From: Flavobacterium sp. WC2421
Lineage (GTDB): Bacteria > Bacteroidota > Bacteroidia > Flavobacteriales > Flavobacteriaceae
Reading direction: 5' to 3'
NCBI RefSeq assembly: GCF_040822115.1
Contig: NZ_CP162004.1
Coordinates: 1,116,001 to 1,180,000, forward strand
DNA: 64,000 bases
Program-made: the position numbers and the translations under genes
Shown: positions 7,091 through 56,765 of the stretch, piece by piece
How the letters are laid out: the number at the start of each line of letters is the position of its first letter
Numbering within the stretch: position 1 is the stretch's first letter
The notes under the pieces: generated by a model
What the model was told of the DNA's origin: nothing
Seen by the model: the letters and a program-made list of their open reading frames with translations, nothing else
Databases searched by the model: none

Positions 7091-7906
7091 ATGAACTATT
7101 CGTACATTATTATTGACGACAATCAAGAAAGTGTTTTGAAAACAAAAGCCATGGCTGATAGTTTTTCGGAGCTGGTTTTTGTAGCTACAGCTCATAACTA
7201 TGAAGATGGTCTAAATCTTATATTAGAAAACACGCCAGACTTAGTCTTTCTTGAAATAGACCCGGTAAATAAAAAAAGCAATTTATCCTTATTGCTTATT
7301 AATGAGTTGCACCGATACTTAAAAGTAATTCCAAAAATTATTGTTACCACTTCTAAAAAAGACTTTGCTTTTGAAGCAATACAATATGGCGTAACTGATT
7401 ATCTTTTAAAACCTTTAGCGCGTATTGATTTTGTGAAATTTATTTTAAAATTAAACAAATCAAATACTGAAGCTGAAGTTCAAATTTTGAAGCCAACAGT
7501 TTCTACTGAAGAGCGACCAACCGTTTTTGTTCAGCATGAATCGACTAGTAAGGAAGACCCTCTCATATTGTGTATTAAGTCTTATGGTGATTACAGGTAT
7601 ATTGATGCTAGAGATATTTGTTATTTACAAGCGGATAATAACTCTACTGATATACACTTAAATAACGGAGAGATGGTCACCGCTTTCAAAACGTTAAAGC
7701 ATTTTGAAGGGGTGTTAACCTATCCTTTTACAAGAATCCATAACAGTTATATTGTTAACAGCCACTACATTTCAAGGATACATACGGGTAATTCATTGTG
7801 TTATATTAAAAACACGACTACAAAACTTCCGTTTTCTAAAACATATAAGGTAAATATTGACCTTATTATCTCTGAAATTTCTAACGGGAATTACCTTGAA
7901 ATTTAA
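7091..7906 (+). CDS. LytTR-type response regulator with a substituted phospho-acceptor
   Basis: A 271-residue cytosolic DNA-binding regulator. Receiver domain about 1-115: acidic pair D9-D10, T86-T87, and K107 in DYLLKP. At the position where family members read FLDI, this protein has E55 (LVFLEIDP), so the normal phospho-acceptor Asp is replaced by Glu. After a linker, a LytTR DNA-binding domain covers about 165-262 (YIDARDICYLQADNNSTDIHL, then FTRIHNSYIVNSHYISRI). It directly precedes the repeat-peptide gene and the histidine kinase. Glu at that site often mimics a phosphorylated state, so it may be constitutively active or respond to something else. No partner kinase with the LytS fold is visible nearby. 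Confidence 0.85.
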   Translation: MNYSYIIIDDNQESVLKTKAMADSFSELVFVATAHNYEDGLNLILENTPDLVFLEIDPVNKKSNLSLLLINELHRYLKVIPKIIVTTSKKDFAFEAIQYGVTDYLLKPLARIDFVKFILKLNKSNTEAEVQILKPTVSTEERPTVFVQHESTSKEDPLILCIKSYGDYRYIDARDICYLQADNNSTDIHLNNGEMVTAFKTLKHFEGVLTYPFTRIHNSYIVNSHYISRIHTGNSLCYIKNTTTKLPFSKTYKVNIDLIISEISNGNYLEI

Positions 7907-8083
7907 AAAATAGTCATTCACCCTAATTTGACTATCATTCACTATCAGACGATAGCATTCTACCATTGAGACTCTTTTTTGTAAGAAAAAATGGGATGTC
8001 CTGTGTATTTTTACATCGTGATACTGCTGATATGCAGGTCATTAAACAAGTAAAAAATTTTAAAAACATAAAATCCCCAAATT

Positions 8084-8398
8084 ATGAAAAAATCAATCTT
8101 AACAATCGCTTTATTCTCTTTAGTAATGGTATTAACTTCATTTACTACACCAGAAACAAATAATGTAAACATCATAGGCGGAGGTTCTACTTCAGCAGGA
8201 AACGTAAAATTAGATATTATAGGCGGAGGTTCTACTTCAGCAGGAAACGTAAAATTAGATATTATAGGGGGAGGTTCTACTTCAGCAGGAAATGTAAAAT
8301 TAGATATTATAGGCGGAGGTTCTACTTCAGCAGGAAATGTAAAATTAGATATTATAGGCGGAGGTTCTACTTCAGCAGGAAATGTAAAATTAGATTAA
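8084..8398 (+). CDS. Small secreted protein with five identical 15-residue repeats
   Basis: A 104-residue protein I do not recognise. Residues 1-20 look like a Sec signal peptide (MKKSILTIALFSLVMVLTSF), followed by a short linker TTPETNNVN and then five exact copies of IIGGGSTSAGNVKLD (residues 30-104), ending directly at the stop. There is no Cys, no aromatic residue after the signal, and no anchor, so the product is probably exported and soluble or fibrous. It lies between a LytTR regulator and a TPR histidine kinase and ends in its own terminator (8427-8456), so it is expressed as a separate short mRNA. Possible roles, all inferred: processed signalling peptide, amyloid-like or beta-solenoid surface fibre, or adhesin fragment. 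Confidence 0.75.
   Translation: MKKSILTIALFSLVMVLTSFTTPETNNVNIIGGGSTSAGNVKLDIIGGGSTSAGNVKLDIIGGGSTSAGNVKLDIIGGGSTSAGNVKLDIIGGGSTSAGNVKLD
8171..8395 (+). repeat. Tandem repeat, 5 x 45 bp
   Basis: Units at 8171-8215, 8216-8260, 8261-8305, 8306-8350 and 8351-8395. They differ only by silent third-base changes: ATC/ATT in codon 1, GGC/GGG in one Gly codon of unit 3, and AAC/AAT in the Asn codon. Units 4 and 5 are identical in DNA. Confidence 0.97.
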
Positions 8399-8426
8399 AT
8401 TTAAATCTATATCAGAAAATATACTT

Positions 8427-8456
8427 AGGCTATCAATTATTTGATAGCCTTTTTTT
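8427..8456 (+). terminator. Terminator of the repeat-peptide gene
   Basis: Perfect 10-bp arms AGGCTATCAA/TTGATAGCCT, TTAT loop, then a T-run. It separates the peptide gene from the kinase gene. Confidence 0.9.
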
Positions 8457-8477
8457 ATGTTAATTGCTTTATTTTAC

Positions 8478-8485
8478 TATTTTTG
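8478..8485 (+). promoter_or_regulatory. -7 promoter element of the histidine kinase gene
   Basis: TATTTTTG, exact TAnnTTTG match, 20 bases upstream of the TTG chosen as start at 8506 and 14 bases downstream of the alternative TTG at 8464. The -33 half is weak. Confidence 0.5.
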
Positions 8486-8505
8486 ATGAAATTCTTATTC
8501 AACTT

Positions 8506-10557
8506 TTGAAAAATAAAGCACTCATATATCTTTTTTTATTTTTGTTCTTATTTTTTTTGGGTTGTTCCAAAAAGAAAAAAGAAAATACTCTAGTAACTTC
8601 ATCAGAGGATAGTCTATCCACTTATTTTTCATTAGCCAATGATTTTAGTATGGCCAAAGAGAAGAGGTTATTGTTTACTGAAAAAGCATTTAATATTGTT
8701 GTAAATCAAAAGGATGATTCTCTTAATAGAGTAAATTTATTTAAAGTTGCCAACCGATATTACAACATAAACAATTGGAAAGAATTTAATAAAACAGTCC
8801 ATTTGGTTTTAAAGCAATCAGAAAATGCTAAAGATACTCTACATTTAATTAAAGCTTATACCTATTTGGGAGATTATTATGATTCTCAAGCAATTTCTGA
8901 CAGTGCTTTTATGTTTTATTATAAAGCCGAAAAAATGTATGTTCAGCCTCGTGATAATTTGGTTTTAAGTAAAATACTAATCAATAAAGCGAACTTACAA
9001 TATAGGATAGGTGATTTTTTAGGTTCACAAAATTCAGTTTTTAATGTGTTGAGAAAAATTAAAGATGAAAAGCAAGTCAATAATATTTTGTATGATGCTT
9101 ATAATCTTTTGGGGCTTATCTACAATGAGCTTGGCGAATTTGATAATGCGATGATCTATTCCAATAAAGCATTAGCAATTAGTGAAGATCAGTCGATTCC
9201 CGGAGAATTTCAATCAAAAGCCAGTTCGTTAAATAATATTGGTTTTTTATATTTAAATTCTCAAAAATTTTTAATGGCGAAAAAATTTTTTCAAAATGGA
9301 TTAGAACAAAAAGACTTACTTAAGTTTAAACCTGCTTTATTTGCTGTTTTATCGGATAATTTAGCCTACTCTAAATTTAAACTTAACGAAACAGATAATC
9401 TTCCAGAATTATTTTATCAATCGTTGAAAATGAGAGAAAATCTAAAACTTACCTCTGGAATATTTATTAATAAAATACATTTGTCCGAATATTTTGCTTC
9501 TAAAATGGATACCGTTAGAGCAATAGAATATTCTAAAGAAGCACTTTTGTTAGCTCGTAGTACTAATGTTTCTCGTGATATATTAGTTGCTCTTAAACAA
9601 TTGTCCTTAATTGAGCCAGAAAAGTCATCCGTTTATTCTAAAGAATACATTCATATTAATGAAGAAATGCAAAAAGAAGAGCGCAGTATGGGAGATAAAT
9701 TTTCTCGTATTGAATATGAAACAGACAGGATTAAAGATGAAAACAGTAGTTTAGCCGATCAAAACAGGAATTTAGTTTATGTTTTTAGTTTCATCACCAT
9801 TTTAGGATTGTTTTTATATATCATCAAAGCGCAAAAAACCAAGAATAGAGAATTGTTGTACAAACAACAGCAACAAAAAGCAAATGAGGATATTTATAAC
9901 TTAATGATCTCGCAGCAAAATACGATTGAGACCAACAGGGTAAAAGAGAAAAAACGCGTTGCTCAAGAATTACATGATGGGGTTTTAGGGAGAATGTTTG
10001 GGGTGCGAATGAATTTAGATGGTCTAAATAGGTTTAATGATGATATGGCTATTGAACAAAGAATTAGTTATTTATCGGAATTAAAAAATATTGAGCAGGA
10101 TATTCGTGAAATTTCTCATGACTTAAATAGAGAAAAATCGGAATTAATTAATAACTTCGTAGCAATTGTTGATAATTTATTTGAAAAACAGCGTAATACT
10201 TTTAAGCCCAGATTGATTTCTAATATTGATAGAAACATTAAATGGGAATTATTAGTAAATGCTGTAAAAATCAATTTATATAGAATCATTCAGGAATCAC
10301 TTCAAAATATTAATAAATATGCCAACGCTGAAAATATTAATATTGAGCTGAGAAAACAAGGCGATAATTTAGTATTAACGGTAACAGATGATGGCATTGG
10401 ATTTAATGCCAGAGTTAAAAAAAAGGGAATTGGAATGCAAAATATGTTATCTCGAACTAAAGAATGTAATGGGATATTTAATGTAAAATCCAAAAAAGGA
10501 GAAGGCGTAATTATTACTGTTATAGTTCCATTAGAACAAATACAAATACCATCATAG
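8506..10557 (+). CDS. TPR-containing sensor histidine kinase (HisKA_3/NarX type), lipoprotein N-terminus
   Basis: A sensor kinase of about 683 residues. From the TTG at 8506 it begins with a textbook lipoprotein signal (KNKALIYLF... then FFLGC and a KKKK patch). The longer frame from TTG 8464 would start upstream of the promoter element and spoil the signal, so 8506 is preferred. TPR-like helical pairs fill about 40-390, a transmembrane helix (LVYVFSFITILGLFLYII) lies near 425-445, then a coiled coil and a HisKA_3 dimerisation domain with ELHDGVLGRMFG, H490 being the phospho-accepting His. The HATPase_c domain ends the protein (NINKYANAENI, DDGIGF, GIGMQNM, GEGVIITV). The response regulator gene starts 2 bases after its stop. 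TPRs in the periplasm may sense a peptide or protein ligand; that is inference. Confidence 0.88.
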   Translation: MKNKALIYLFLFLFLFFLGCSKKKKENTLVTSSEDSLSTYFSLANDFSMAKEKRLLFTEKAFNIVVNQKDDSLNRVNLFKVANRYYNINNWKEFNKTVHLVLKQSENAKDTLHLIKAYTYLGDYYDSQAISDSAFMFYYKAEKMYVQPRDNLVLSKILINKANLQYRIGDFLGSQNSVFNVLRKIKDEKQVNNILYDAYNLLGLIYNELGEFDNAMIYSNKALAISEDQSIPGEFQSKASSLNNIGFLYLNSQKFLMAKKFFQNGLEQKDLLKFKPALFAVLSDNLAYSKFKLNETDNLPELFYQSLKMRENLKLTSGIFINKIHLSEYFASKMDTVRAIEYSKEALLLARSTNVSRDILVALKQLSLIEPEKSSVYSKEYIHINEEMQKEERSMGDKFSRIEYETDRIKDENSSLADQNRNLVYVFSFITILGLFLYIIKAQKTKNRELLYKQQQQKANEDIYNLMISQQNTIETNRVKEKKRVAQELHDGVLGRMFGVRMNLDGLNRFNDDMAIEQRISYLSELKNIEQDIREISHDLNREKSELINNFVAIVDNLFEKQRNTFKPRLISNIDRNIKWELLVNAVKINLYRIIQESLQNINKYANAENINIELRKQGDNLVLTVTDDGIGFNARVKKKGIGMQNMLSRTKECNGIFNVKSKKGEGVIITVIVPLEQIQIPS

Positions 10558-10559
10558 AA

Positions 10560-11252
10560 ATGACAACCGAATCTACTTTAATGCTAAAAGTAAAAAAAAA
10601 CATATTAATAGTTGACGATCATCCGTTCATTATACAGGGATATAAAAATGCTATAACTAGGTATGATGCTGATAATTATGAGTTTTTTATAACAGAGGCA
10701 AAAGATTGTGAGTCAGCTTATCATGTTATTACTAATCCTGAATCGGCTATTTTTGATATCGCTTTTTTAGATATCAGTATGCCTTCGTATGAAGAACAAA
10801 ATCTTTATTCGGGTGAGGATTTGGCAAAATTGATTTTAGAGAACATGCCAAATTGTAAAATAATTTTGTTGACTATGTTTACTGAGTTTTTAAAAATTAA
10901 AACAATCATAAGTAATATAAATCCAAATGGGTTAGTAATTAAAAATGATTTAACCTTTGATGAACTTTTATTTGCTTTTGATAAAGTGATCAAAAATGAA
11001 TTTTATTACAGTAAATCTGTTTTAGAGATGTTAGAATCGCATGAAAATGACATCGAAATAGATTTATTTGATAAGCAAATTCTTTTCCATTTGTCAAAAG
11101 GAACTAAAGCAAAAGACATTCCTCAATACATTCCAATTTCGTTAAACGCAATTGAAGCGCGAAAATTAAATCTCAAGGAATTATTAAAAGTAACTGATGG
11201 AAGTGATATCGAATTGGTTCGGGAAGCTAGAAAAATCGGTTTGTTATTTTAA
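10560..11252 (+). CDS. Response regulator (receiver plus short LuxR-like C-terminal region)
   Basis: A 230-residue regulator, partner of the preceding kinase from which it is separated by 2 bases. Receiver domain: D19-D20 in ILIVDDHPF, phospho-acceptor D71 in AFLDISMP, T105 and K128. All catalytic residues are present. The C-terminal 65 residues (LFDKQILFHLSKGTKAKDIPQYIPISLNAIEARKLNLKELL) resemble the helix-turn-helix of NarL/LuxR regulators with the usual KEIA.. replaced by KDIPQYIP. An alternative start is M8. Output is probably transcriptional; targets unknown, the repeat-peptide gene next door being an obvious candidate. It ends at a bidirectional terminator shared with thiL. Confidence 0.87.
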   Translation: MTTESTLMLKVKKNILIVDDHPFIIQGYKNAITRYDADNYEFFITEAKDCESAYHVITNPESAIFDIAFLDISMPSYEEQNLYSGEDLAKLILENMPNCKIILLTMFTEFLKIKTIISNINPNGLVIKNDLTFDELLFAFDKVIKNEFYYSKSVLEMLESHENDIEIDLFDKQILFHLSKGTKAKDIPQYIPISLNAIEARKLNLKELLKVTDGSDIELVREARKIGLLF

Positions 11253-11267
11253 TATTGGAAATTACAT

Positions 11268-11304
11268 AAAAAAAAGCGACACCTAATGATGTCGCTTTTT
11301 TTTT
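11268..11304. terminator. Bidirectional terminator between the response regulator and thiL
   Basis: GCGACA at 11276-11281 pairs with TGTCGC at 11290-11295, flanked by an A-run on the left and a T-run on the right, so it works in both directions. Confidence 0.88.
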
Positions 11305-15309: not shown

Positions 15310-15400
15310 TAGGGCGTGACCACAAGGGTCGGGTTATTCGTTTCAATCTTTTCCTTTAAAAAAAAGGAAAAGGATTTTCACTGCTACCCCTCACGCAAAA
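15310..15400 (+). repeat. Hairpin repeat element A (subtype 1)
   Basis: 5' arm GGTCGGGTTATTCG...CAATCTTTT, hairpin tip CTTTTCCTTT/AAAGGAAAAG (15348-15372), 3' arm AAAAGGATTTTCACTGCTAC then CCCTCACGC. Same arms as elements B, C and D with a different tip. It lies between divergent lepA and dus. Confidence 0.8.
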
Positions 15401-15531
15401 GCGTCGAACAACGACAATTAATCTGCAAATATACGCTAAAATCAATAGCTTCAAAGCCTAGAATTAGTAAACTAATAGGTTAAGTTAGAAGTCTTTTCGA
15501 TAACTACTTTCTGCGATTCATCTAAATGTTG

Positions 15532-18319: not shown

Positions 18320-18425
18320 TAGGAGCTATTTCCTGCTGTTCTTTGCAATCTTTTATAAAGCTGAAAGCATTCAAAAGGCTTCCAGCTTTATAAAAGGATT
18401 TCCACTTCTATCAGGGCCTAGGGGA
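18320..18425 (+). repeat. Hairpin repeat element B (subtype 2)
   Basis: 5' arm AGCTATTTCCTGCTGTTC then TTTGCAATCTTTT; hairpin tip 18350-18396 with a 19-bp stem (one mismatch) beginning CTTTTATAAAGCTG; 3' arm AAAAGGATTTCCACTTCTAT then CAGGGCCTAGG. Shares its outer ends with element D. Confidence 0.8.
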
Positions 18426-26041: not shown

Positions 26042-27475
26042 ATGAAACATCTTAACAAAATTTTAGTTGCTGCAATGATGGTGATGGGGTTAAGCTCTCA
26101 CGCACAAGACAGTAACAACCCGTGGGCTATCTCTTTTGGAGTTAATGCCGTAGACACTAGAACAAGTGCTGGTGGTGGAAATGGATGGTTGGATCAACAT
26201 TTTTCTCAGCCATTTGCTGTTAAAGATAATTGGAATGTTCTTCCTTCTGTATCTTACATTGGTATATCTAAATACCTAGGAGATAATTTCTCTTTTGGTG
26301 TTCAAGGATCTGTGAATAAAATTGAAAAATATGTAAAATTTGATCCTACTGCAACAGGTCATGATTCTCGTGGAATGGTTGTTTCTAATCCTGGAGATTT
26401 AATGTATTATGGTATTGACGCAACGGTTAAATATAGCTTCATGAGCTTAATCAACTCTAAAGTTATCGATCCTTCGTTACACGTTGGTGGAGGTTATACT
26501 TTCTTTGGAGATAGTAGTTATGGTACTGTAAATCCAGGTGCTGGATTAACTTTATGGTTTACTGAAAACATAGGTTTGTCATTTGAAACAAGCTATAAAA
26601 AATCATTTGGTGATAGAGAAGATGCTTCAGGTACTCCTGATGCTCCATCTCACTTCCAACATACCGCTGGTCTTACTTTCAAATTTGGAGGAAAAGATAC
26701 TGACGGAGATGGAATTTACGACAAAGATGATGCTTGTCCAGAAGTTGCAGGTTTAAAACAATTCAACGGTTGTCCTGATACTGATGGAGACGGAATTATC
26801 GACGGAAATGATGCTTGTCCAGATGTATTTGGTTTAGCTGCATTAAACGGTTGTCCTGACACTGATGGAGATGGTATAGCTGATAAAGATGATGCTTGTC
26901 CAGATGTATTTGGTTTAGCTGCTTTAAAAGGATGTCCAGATGCTGATGGTGATGGAATTACTGATAAAGATGATAAATGTCCTACTGTTGCAGGTCCAAA
27001 AGAAAACGCAGGTTGTCCTTGGCCAGATACTGATGGAGATGGAGTATTAGACAAAGATGATAAATGTCCTACTGTAAAAGGAACTGTTGCTAACAAAGGT
27101 TGTCCTGAAGTTACTGCTGAAGTTATCAAACAATTAAACGAATATGGTAAAACAATTTTGTTTGATTCTGGAAAATCTACTTTCAAGAAACAATCTTATA
27201 CAGTTTTAGAATCTATTGCATCAATCTTAAAAGAATATCCTAATTCTAGATTTATGATTGAAGGTCATACTGATAGCGATGGTTCTAATGCTTTAAACCA
27301 AGATTTATCTCAAAATAGAGCTCATGCCGTTAAAAATTACTTAATTGAAAATGGTATTGCTGCAGATAGATTAGAGCACACAGGTTATGGTGAAACTAAA
27401 CCAATTGCTACTAATAAAACAGCAAAAGGAAAAGCTCAAAACAGAAGAGTTGAAGTTTCTTTAATTAAAGAATAA
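26042..27475 (+). CDS. OmpA-family outer-membrane protein with TSP3 repeats
   Basis: A 477-residue envelope protein. Signal peptide [23 protein letters not shown]-terminal beta-barrel (about 23-215) with barrel strands such as [15 protein letters not shown] and LTFKFGGK; five thrombospondin type 3 calcium-binding repeats (about 220-355) of the form DTDGDGIxDxxDxCPxxxG; C-terminal OmpA domain (about 365-477) with [23 protein letters not shown] and [12 protein letters not shown] that binds peptidoglycan. It anchors the outer membrane to the wall, with calcium stiffening the linker. The repeat region is also a DNA-level near-repeat. It has its own good promoter and a strong terminator. Confidence 0.93.
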
Positions 27476-44997: not shown

Positions 44998-45092
44998 GGG
45001 GTGTCCTCCGCAAAAGCTCCGGTCGGGCTATGCGTTGCAATCTTTTATTTCATTGCATTTCATAAAAGGATTTCCACTGCTATCCCTCACCC
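44998..45092 (+). repeat. Hairpin repeat element C (subtype 1)
   Basis: 5' arm CTCCGGTCGGGCTATGCG then TTGCAATCTTTT; short tip stem CTTTTAT/ATAAAAG (45042-45068); 3' arm AAAAGGATTTCCACTGCTAT then CCCTCACCC. Shares its ends with element A and, inverted, with E. The remainder of the 44896-45302 gap shows no gene. Confidence 0.8.
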
Positions 45093-45302
45093 GAGAAAGA
45101 ACAAAGAGGAGAGAAAAAACAATATACTTTATTAAAAATTCAGTACTCATTTGTAGTAAATTATTTGTTATATTTGATTGAGATGATATAACAAATAAGC
45201 AAACGAACCTTCGCTTATAAGATCTAAATTGGATGTAAAGGAGCAAGTTTGCAACTAGTATAAATAAGTTAGTTACTATTGCCAAAAAAACAAACTTCAA
45301 AA

Positions 45303-56654: not shown

Positions 56655-56765
56655 TTAAAGCTTCTTCCTGCTATTCGTTTCAATCTTTTATCCTGAACTT
56701 GTTTCAGGATCCTGAAACAAGTTCAGGATAAAAGGATTTCCACTGCTATCAGGGCTAGGCGTTTT
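56655..56765 (+). repeat. Hairpin repeat element D (subtype 2), inside the nuo operon
   Basis: 5' arm AGCTTCTTCCTGCTATTCG then TTTCAATCTTTT; 3' arm AAAAGGATTTCCACTGCTAT then CAGGGCTAGGC. The tip is a 50-bp perfect palindrome, 56685-56734, built around CCTGAACTTGTTTCAG and its complement. Lies between nuoI and nuoH. Confidence 0.85.

What the first reader, a model, noticed from the sequence alone, without database searches (positions are those of the whole stretch)
7091..11252. Two-component locus built around a secreted identical-repeat peptide
A LytTR regulator, a signal-peptide-bearing protein of five identical 15-residue repeats, a lipoprotein TPR histidine kinase and a response regulator lie head to tail. 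The peptide has its own terminator and so its own mRNA. I know of no described system of this form. Hypotheses: (1) the repeats are released as a pheromone-like peptide sensed by the periplasmic TPRs; (2) they form a beta-solenoid or amyloid-like fibre whose production is controlled by the two regulators. Both are inference from layout.
Basis: partly seen in the sequence, partly recalled or inferred. Interest (0 to 1): 0.75.

Follow-up and report, generated by a model that had tools for sequence, protein, structure and literature searches.

The report
Flavobacterial repeat-peptide signal with TPR receptor
A Flavobacterium gene makes a small exported protein carrying five identical 15-residue peptides and sits beside a membrane sensor kinase; related bacteria keep the pair together but tend to change the peptide and the sensor's outer domain in step, as expected of an undescribed species-specific peptide signalling system.

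Summary
Observation confirmed: 7091-11252 holds a LytTR protein, an exported 104-aa protein with five identical 15-aa repeats, a lipoprotein TPR histidine kinase and a response regulator. A small exported-peptide ORF lies just upstream of this kinase in 20 of 20 further Flavobacterium loci and 46 of 48 loci of other genera picked by the kinase alone, against 3 of 470 control ORFs. Within a protein, units stay nearly identical although silent sites differ by 35% (pN/pS 0.034); in 10 close-species pairs none shares the unit (0.31), though in a wider set 18 of 62 close pairs have near-identical units. Unit divergence tracks the kinase ectodomain, not the kinase domain (partial r 0.56, 49 independent pairs). 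The modelled ectodomain resembles LGN and the pheromone receptors NprR and Rap. Best reading: a peptide-signal precursor and its extracytoplasmic TPR receptor kinase. Single-unit members argue against a fibre. The LytTR receiver has Glu at the phospho-Asp site in 103 of 105 sequences, so it is probably not the kinase's target. Processing, release, binding and response are unshown; a cell-autonomous ligand remains possible. Ten searches of an open-licence paper library found no such system.

The parts
7091..7906 (+). LytTR-domain protein with a receiver-like N-terminal domain; Glu in place of the phospho-accepting Asp
   Evidence: Pfam PF04397 and PF00072; Glu in 103 of 105 aligned sequences, window included
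7915..7964 (+). Promoter-region repeats CATTCAC / CATTCAC / CATTCTACC at 7915, 7936 and 7956 (period 20-21 bp); candidate LytTR binding site (inferred)
   Evidence: Conserved block in 87 aligned upstream regions; only exact match of the spaced pair in the 3.83 Mb genome. In a looser count 51 of 107 Flavobacterium promoters have a spaced pair, other genera 1 of 46
8006..8014 (+). TATTTTTAC, conserved TAGTTTTAC-like element, possible -7 element (inferred)
   Evidence: High information content
8084..8398 (+). Peptide precursor gene, 104 aa: conserved leader plus five identical 15-aa units
8171..8395 (+). Five copies of IIGGGSTSAGNVKLD (residues 30-104); proposed signal peptide units
   Evidence: within-array conservation
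8427..8450 (+). Intrinsic terminator hairpin between peptide and kinase genes (T-run follows)
   Evidence: hairpin of this kind in 102 of 105 loci
8506..10557 (+). Sensor kinase: lipobox Cys20, TPR ectodomain about 35-392, membrane segment about 422-440 (by eye), His490, HisKA_3/HATPase_c
10560..11252 (+). Response regulator (receiver Asp kept in 105 of 105 aligned sequences; C-terminus resembles NarL/LuxR-type regulators below model cut-offs)
11268..11303 (.). Bidirectional terminator after the response regulator

Best explanation
The locus encodes a peptide signal and its receptor. The 104-aa precursor is exported (leader seen in the sequence only), its C-terminal units are cut out, probably at K/R-x-D boundaries (inferred), and the roughly 15-aa peptide binds the extracytoplasmic TPR superhelix of the adjacent lipoprotein kinase (inferred from fold, linkage and covariation). 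The kinase then signals to the adjacent response regulator (family knowledge: HisKA_3 kinase next to a receiver with intact Asp). Several identical units per precursor raise signal yield per transcript. The LytTR protein probably binds the repeats in the peptide promoter and sets peptide output, but by something other than kinase phosphorylation, since its receiver lacks the phospho-Asp. Because peptide and ectodomain tend to change together between close species, the most likely role is species- or strain-specific cell-to-cell signalling. Receptor-ligand pairing is the better supported part (about 0.75); release and intercellular action are the weaker part (about 0.55).
Confidence: 0.65

Rival explanations
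1. Cell-autonomous ligand: the small protein stays in the periplasm or on the membrane and the kinase reads its amount or its degradation as a report on secretion, lipoprotein sorting or protease activity. Binding is as in the best explanation but nothing is exchanged between cells.
For: No exporter known; in many loci of other genera and in the second in-genome pair the partner has a lipobox by eye, compatible with membrane retention. The same linkage and covariation would result.
Against: Fast between-species change of the unit has no obvious reason in a housekeeping sensor; multiplication of identical units suits a diffusible signal better.
Confidence: 0.22
2. Extracellular fibre or adhesin (beta-solenoid or amyloid-like) whose production the kinase controls.
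For: Gly/Ser/Asn-rich identical repeats in the window.
Against: 26 of 105 members have one recognisable unit; in some loci units are split by unrelated linkers; many partners in other genera are short with acidic or proline-rich tails; repeats modelled disordered, block means 48-62; no reason to covary with the sensor domain.
Confidence: 0.03
3. Antimicrobial peptide precursor with a sensing and immunity kinase, as in lantibiotic loci.
For: Small exported, diversifying peptide beside a kinase; Pfam ComC hit just over cut-off in the window protein.
Against: ComC model hits only 2 of 20 family members; in the window nothing else lies between the glycine--tRNA ligase and thiamine-phosphate kinase genes, so no local transporter, immunity or modification gene; the rest of the genome was not searched for them.
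Confidence: 0.05

Closest known systems
RRNPP/RRNPPA pheromone systems (Rap-Phr, NprR-NprX, PlcR-PapR, AimR)
   Same: TPR superhelix receptor next to a small secreted propeptide; in some subfamilies up to six copies of the mature peptide per propeptide (PMC9765709, passages); predicted fold of the ectodomain.
   Different: Those receptors are cytoplasmic and take re-imported peptide, in Firmicutes; here the TPR domain is predicted outside the cytoplasm and fused through a membrane segment to a histidine kinase in Bacteroidota.
agr / ComCDE / Fsr peptide-kinase-LytTR systems
   Same: Propeptide gene, sensor kinase and a LytTR DNA-binding protein in one locus; peptide variants exist within a species (agr groups I-IV, PMC3673130, passages); co-diversification with the sensor is recalled.
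   Different: Kinase is HisKA_3/DesK-like with TPR sensor, not a polytopic AgrC/ComD type; LytTR receiver lacks the phospho-Asp; no AgrB or double-glycine exporter beside it.
VbrK/VxrA kinases with TPR-like periplasmic domain
   Same: Extracytoplasmic TPR-like sensor on a kinase (PMC8534201, passages).
   Different: TPR-like plus PAS-like; no cognate peptide gene mentioned there; Vibrio.
Yeast alpha-factor precursor (recalled)
   Same: Several pheromone copies per secreted precursor.
   Different: Eukaryotic processing and a GPCR receptor.

Membership tests
Orthodox two-component pair (HisKA_3 kinase + response regulator) | H-box His, ATPase domain, adjacent receiver with phospho-Asp | tested here: met
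   HisKA_3 and HATPase_c above cut-off; His490 invariant in 90 rows; Asp in 105 of 105 downstream regulators
RRNPP(A) | TPR peptide-receptor fold | tested here: met
RRNPP(A) | Adjacent small secreted propeptide | tested here: met
RRNPP(A) | Cytoplasmic HTH or phosphatase effector acting on re-imported peptide | tested here: not met
   No HTH model hit in the receptor; lipobox, membrane segment and kinase domain instead; topology predicted, not measured
agr/com-type system | LytTR response regulator phosphorylated by the kinase | tested here: not met
   Glu at the acceptor site in 103 of 105; phosphorylation itself not measured
agr/com-type system | Double-glycine leader (ComC family) with dedicated exporter | tested here: not met
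   ComC model matches 2 of 20 members; no exporter between the flanking genes in the window; whole genome not searched for one
Peptide pheromone system in general | Peptide released and sensed by other cells | not testable with these tools
   needs supernatant transfer or mass spectrometry
Amyloid or solenoid repeat protein | Several stacked repeats required | tested here: not met
   26 of 105 with one recognisable unit; no strands predicted (low confidence)

The most novel reading that the evidence does not exclude
Flavobacteriaceae carry a large, undescribed class of species-specific peptide signalling systems in which small exported or lipid-anchored precursors, often with several identical units, are read by extracytoplasmic Rap/NprR-like TPR receptors fused to histidine kinases. 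Peptide and sensor co-diversify like pherotypes, and one genome can hold more than one pair.
Probability: 0.55. Interest if true: 0.93.

Novelty: new variant of a known kind. Interest (0 to 1): 0.85.

Why it matters
If right, it gives Bacteroidota a peptide-based signalling language that my ten searches of an open-licence paper library did not find described, places an RRNPP-like TPR peptide receptor outside the cytoplasm on a kinase, and could assign a ligand to many orphan 'tetratricopeptide repeat-containing sensor histidine kinases' (2451 relatives at E 1e-30 or better among the candidates scored). The ligand can be read from the DNA next to the kinase, so the idea is testable with one synthetic 15-mer.

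Tried and rejected
Fibre or amyloid reading: rejected (see rivals). Pfam ComC hit: not carried by the family, 2 of 20. Regulon search with the promoter repeats: no clear enrichment over the reversed-pattern control at two mismatches (forward 17, reverse 13, against 14 and 43). Phage-borne copies: none confirmed in viral contigs. Defence-system models: one weak receiver hit only. Spread outside Flavobacteriaceae: kinase in 26 of 247 Bacteroidota genomes, all 26 in that family, and 30 of 196 of the order, one outside the family. The peptide profile itself gives marginal hits outside the genus (four genomes in each, E 9e-5 to 7e-4); not followed up. Of the loci, 91 Flavobacterium loci were fetched by a peptide hit, so only the 20 picked by the kinase test linkage there; the 28 of other genera are the best-scoring and the 20 lower ones were chosen by me down the list, not at random. 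The first within-array estimate (pN/pS 0.063) picked copies partly by identity; one search repeats it with a cut rule independent of identity. Seven of 112 loci (L073, L077, L078, L085, L102, L110, L170) were dropped from the peptide statistics by my leader pattern or a contig end. The windows along the kinase domain are low partly by construction, because kinase-domain distance is the covariate. The residue ranges were chosen after seeing the ranking. Ten paper searches listed no such system: listings with starts of abstracts seen, passages read in eight papers, none in full; subscription papers and preprints are not held. Whether the LytTR/kinase genes mutated in a F. johnsoniae evolution experiment (PMC10197871, passages) are this locus was not tested.

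Full report
What is in the window. The four genes lie head to tail at 7091-11252 as described, between genes for glycine--tRNA ligase and thiamine-phosphate kinase. The window belongs to a 3.83 Mb single-contig genome, position 1116001-1180000; the named relatives found are all Flavobacterium. The repeat protein has a conserved leader, MKKSILTIALFSLVMVLTSFTTPET, and five identical 15-residue units ending at the stop codon.

The peptide family. A single-sequence genome search found it in 134 of 299 Flavobacterium genomes. The unit differs between most species: 100 distinct strings among 105 loci, by an exact-string rule that also counts differences of phase or length. Recognisable copy number: 1 in 26, 2 in 20, 3 in 13, 4 in 34, 5 in 10, 6 in 2 of 105 loci (seven of 112 loci dropped). 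84 of 105 end in K/R-D or K/R-x-D.

Linkage. Glycine--tRNA ligase - LytTR - peptide - kinase - response regulator - thiamine-phosphate kinase is the usual order in the genus, the peptide typically starting about 180 nt after LytTR and ending about 100 nt before the kinase. LytTR is within 1.8 kb upstream in 99 of 109 loci and a response regulator within 400 nt downstream in 105 of 109; in 28 loci of other genera the numbers are 15 and 28. Of 91 loci fetched by a peptide hit 89 hold the kinase; the other two end at a contig end. The kinase is in 263 of 299 Flavobacterium genomes, twice as many as the peptide hits; I took 20 kinase-positive, peptide-negative loci and all 20 had a small exported ORF in the slot. 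In the family, 121 of 199 genomes have the kinase, two of them Flavobacterium. An automatic detector found a small exported ORF 40-250 nt upstream of the kinase in 28 of 28 best-scoring and 18 of 20 lower-scoring loci of other genera, and upstream of 3 of 470 other ORFs of 200 aa or more in the same loci. Over all Flavobacterium loci it scores 107 of 109, but 89 of those were fetched through the peptide. The two misses (L078, L110) have the peptide before the first of two or more tandem kinases. Many partners outside the genus have a lipobox by eye; some carry tandem repeats (L204, L209, L210, L224).

A second pair. In the window's own genome the next TPR kinase (26% identical, 1942861-1944579) also has a small lipoprotein ORF 54 nt upstream, while three other related kinases with a locus in hand (L125, L126, L127) show none. 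Relatives of that kinase occur in 35 of 61 Flavobacterium genomes; of 30 loci 21 have such an ORF automatically, 4 more intact by eye (L266, L269, L276, L289), 2 show a tail out of frame (L264, L265) and 3 have none (L281, L283, L290).

Selection. Units cut only at K/R-x-D boundaries (41 arrays, 128 units): 118 of 147 within-protein pairs are identical in amino acids although silent sites differ at 0.353; pN/pS 0.034. Between species with kinase-domain distance under 0.12 (10 pairs) none share the unit and pN/pS is 0.314. In the wider set of 62 close pairs, 18 have near-identical units and 29 clearly different ones. So copies are kept alike within a cell and often, not always, change between close species.

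Covariation. Over 98 loci the unit distance correlates with ectodomain distance given kinase-domain distance at 0.316 (0 of 500 permutations), with the kinase domain given the ectodomain at 0.097. Given kinase domain and LytTR, the unit gives 0.312 with the ectodomain and the leader, as control, 0.089. Along the ectodomain, 30-residue windows give 0.06 to 0.33 (best 265-294); windows from 415 on give -0.18 to 0.14, partly by construction since the kinase domain is the covariate. In 49 phylogenetically independent pairs the partial correlation is 0.565 (0 of 5000), against -0.14 for the kinase domain and 0.04 for LytTR. Of the ten best ectodomain columns four lie in 226-245 or 262-282, against 12% of columns, ranges chosen after the fact.

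Regulation. Three CATTC repeats at 20-21 bp period precede the peptide gene; the block is conserved in the alignment and the exact spaced pair occurs once in the genome. That LytTR proteins bind direct repeats of about this spacing is recalled. A terminator-like hairpin follows the peptide gene in 102 of 105 loci. The LytTR receiver has Glu at the acceptor site in 103 of 105, the downstream regulator Asp in 105 of 105. I infer that the kinase acts on the downstream regulator and that LytTR drives the peptide promoter by another input.

Judgement. Peptide-receptor pairing is supported by several independent lines; processing, release, intercellular action and output are inference. No family name fits: it works like RRNPP and agr systems but fails a defining feature of each.

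Noticed in passing
window 15323-15401, 18325-18422, 45017-45101, 56660-56760 (- strand): Four Flavo-1 RNA (RF01705) matches above the gathering score.
   Followed up: no
window 26696-27106: Tandem repeats encoding DTDGDG-type units (calcium-binding, thrombospondin type 3-like by eye).
   Followed up: no
L099 and L292 (genome G157): Receptor kinase split: first 151 aa at the locus, residues 154-680 with the response regulator and thiamine-phosphate kinase about 611 kb away, other ORFs at both breaks; peptide gene kept.
   Followed up: partly
L175; L230: Two tandem precursor genes with different leaders share a C-terminal tail (L175 NASVGGNKKND); L230 shows a second copy of KKGVTPPTNG in the upstream DNA, read by eye.
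   Followed up: partly
L231 (genome G357): Five TPR kinase matches in tandem, the last cut by the end of the stretch, with no small exported ORF found upstream.
   Followed up: no
PMC10197871: Parallel mutations in F. johnsoniae LytTR and kinase genes FJOH_RS09515 and FJOH_RS09520 during coevolution (passages); relation to this locus unknown.
   Followed up: no
L200- and L268-type lipoproteins: NCBIfam PG1828 family lipoprotein model matches the leaders well below its cut-off.
   Followed up: no
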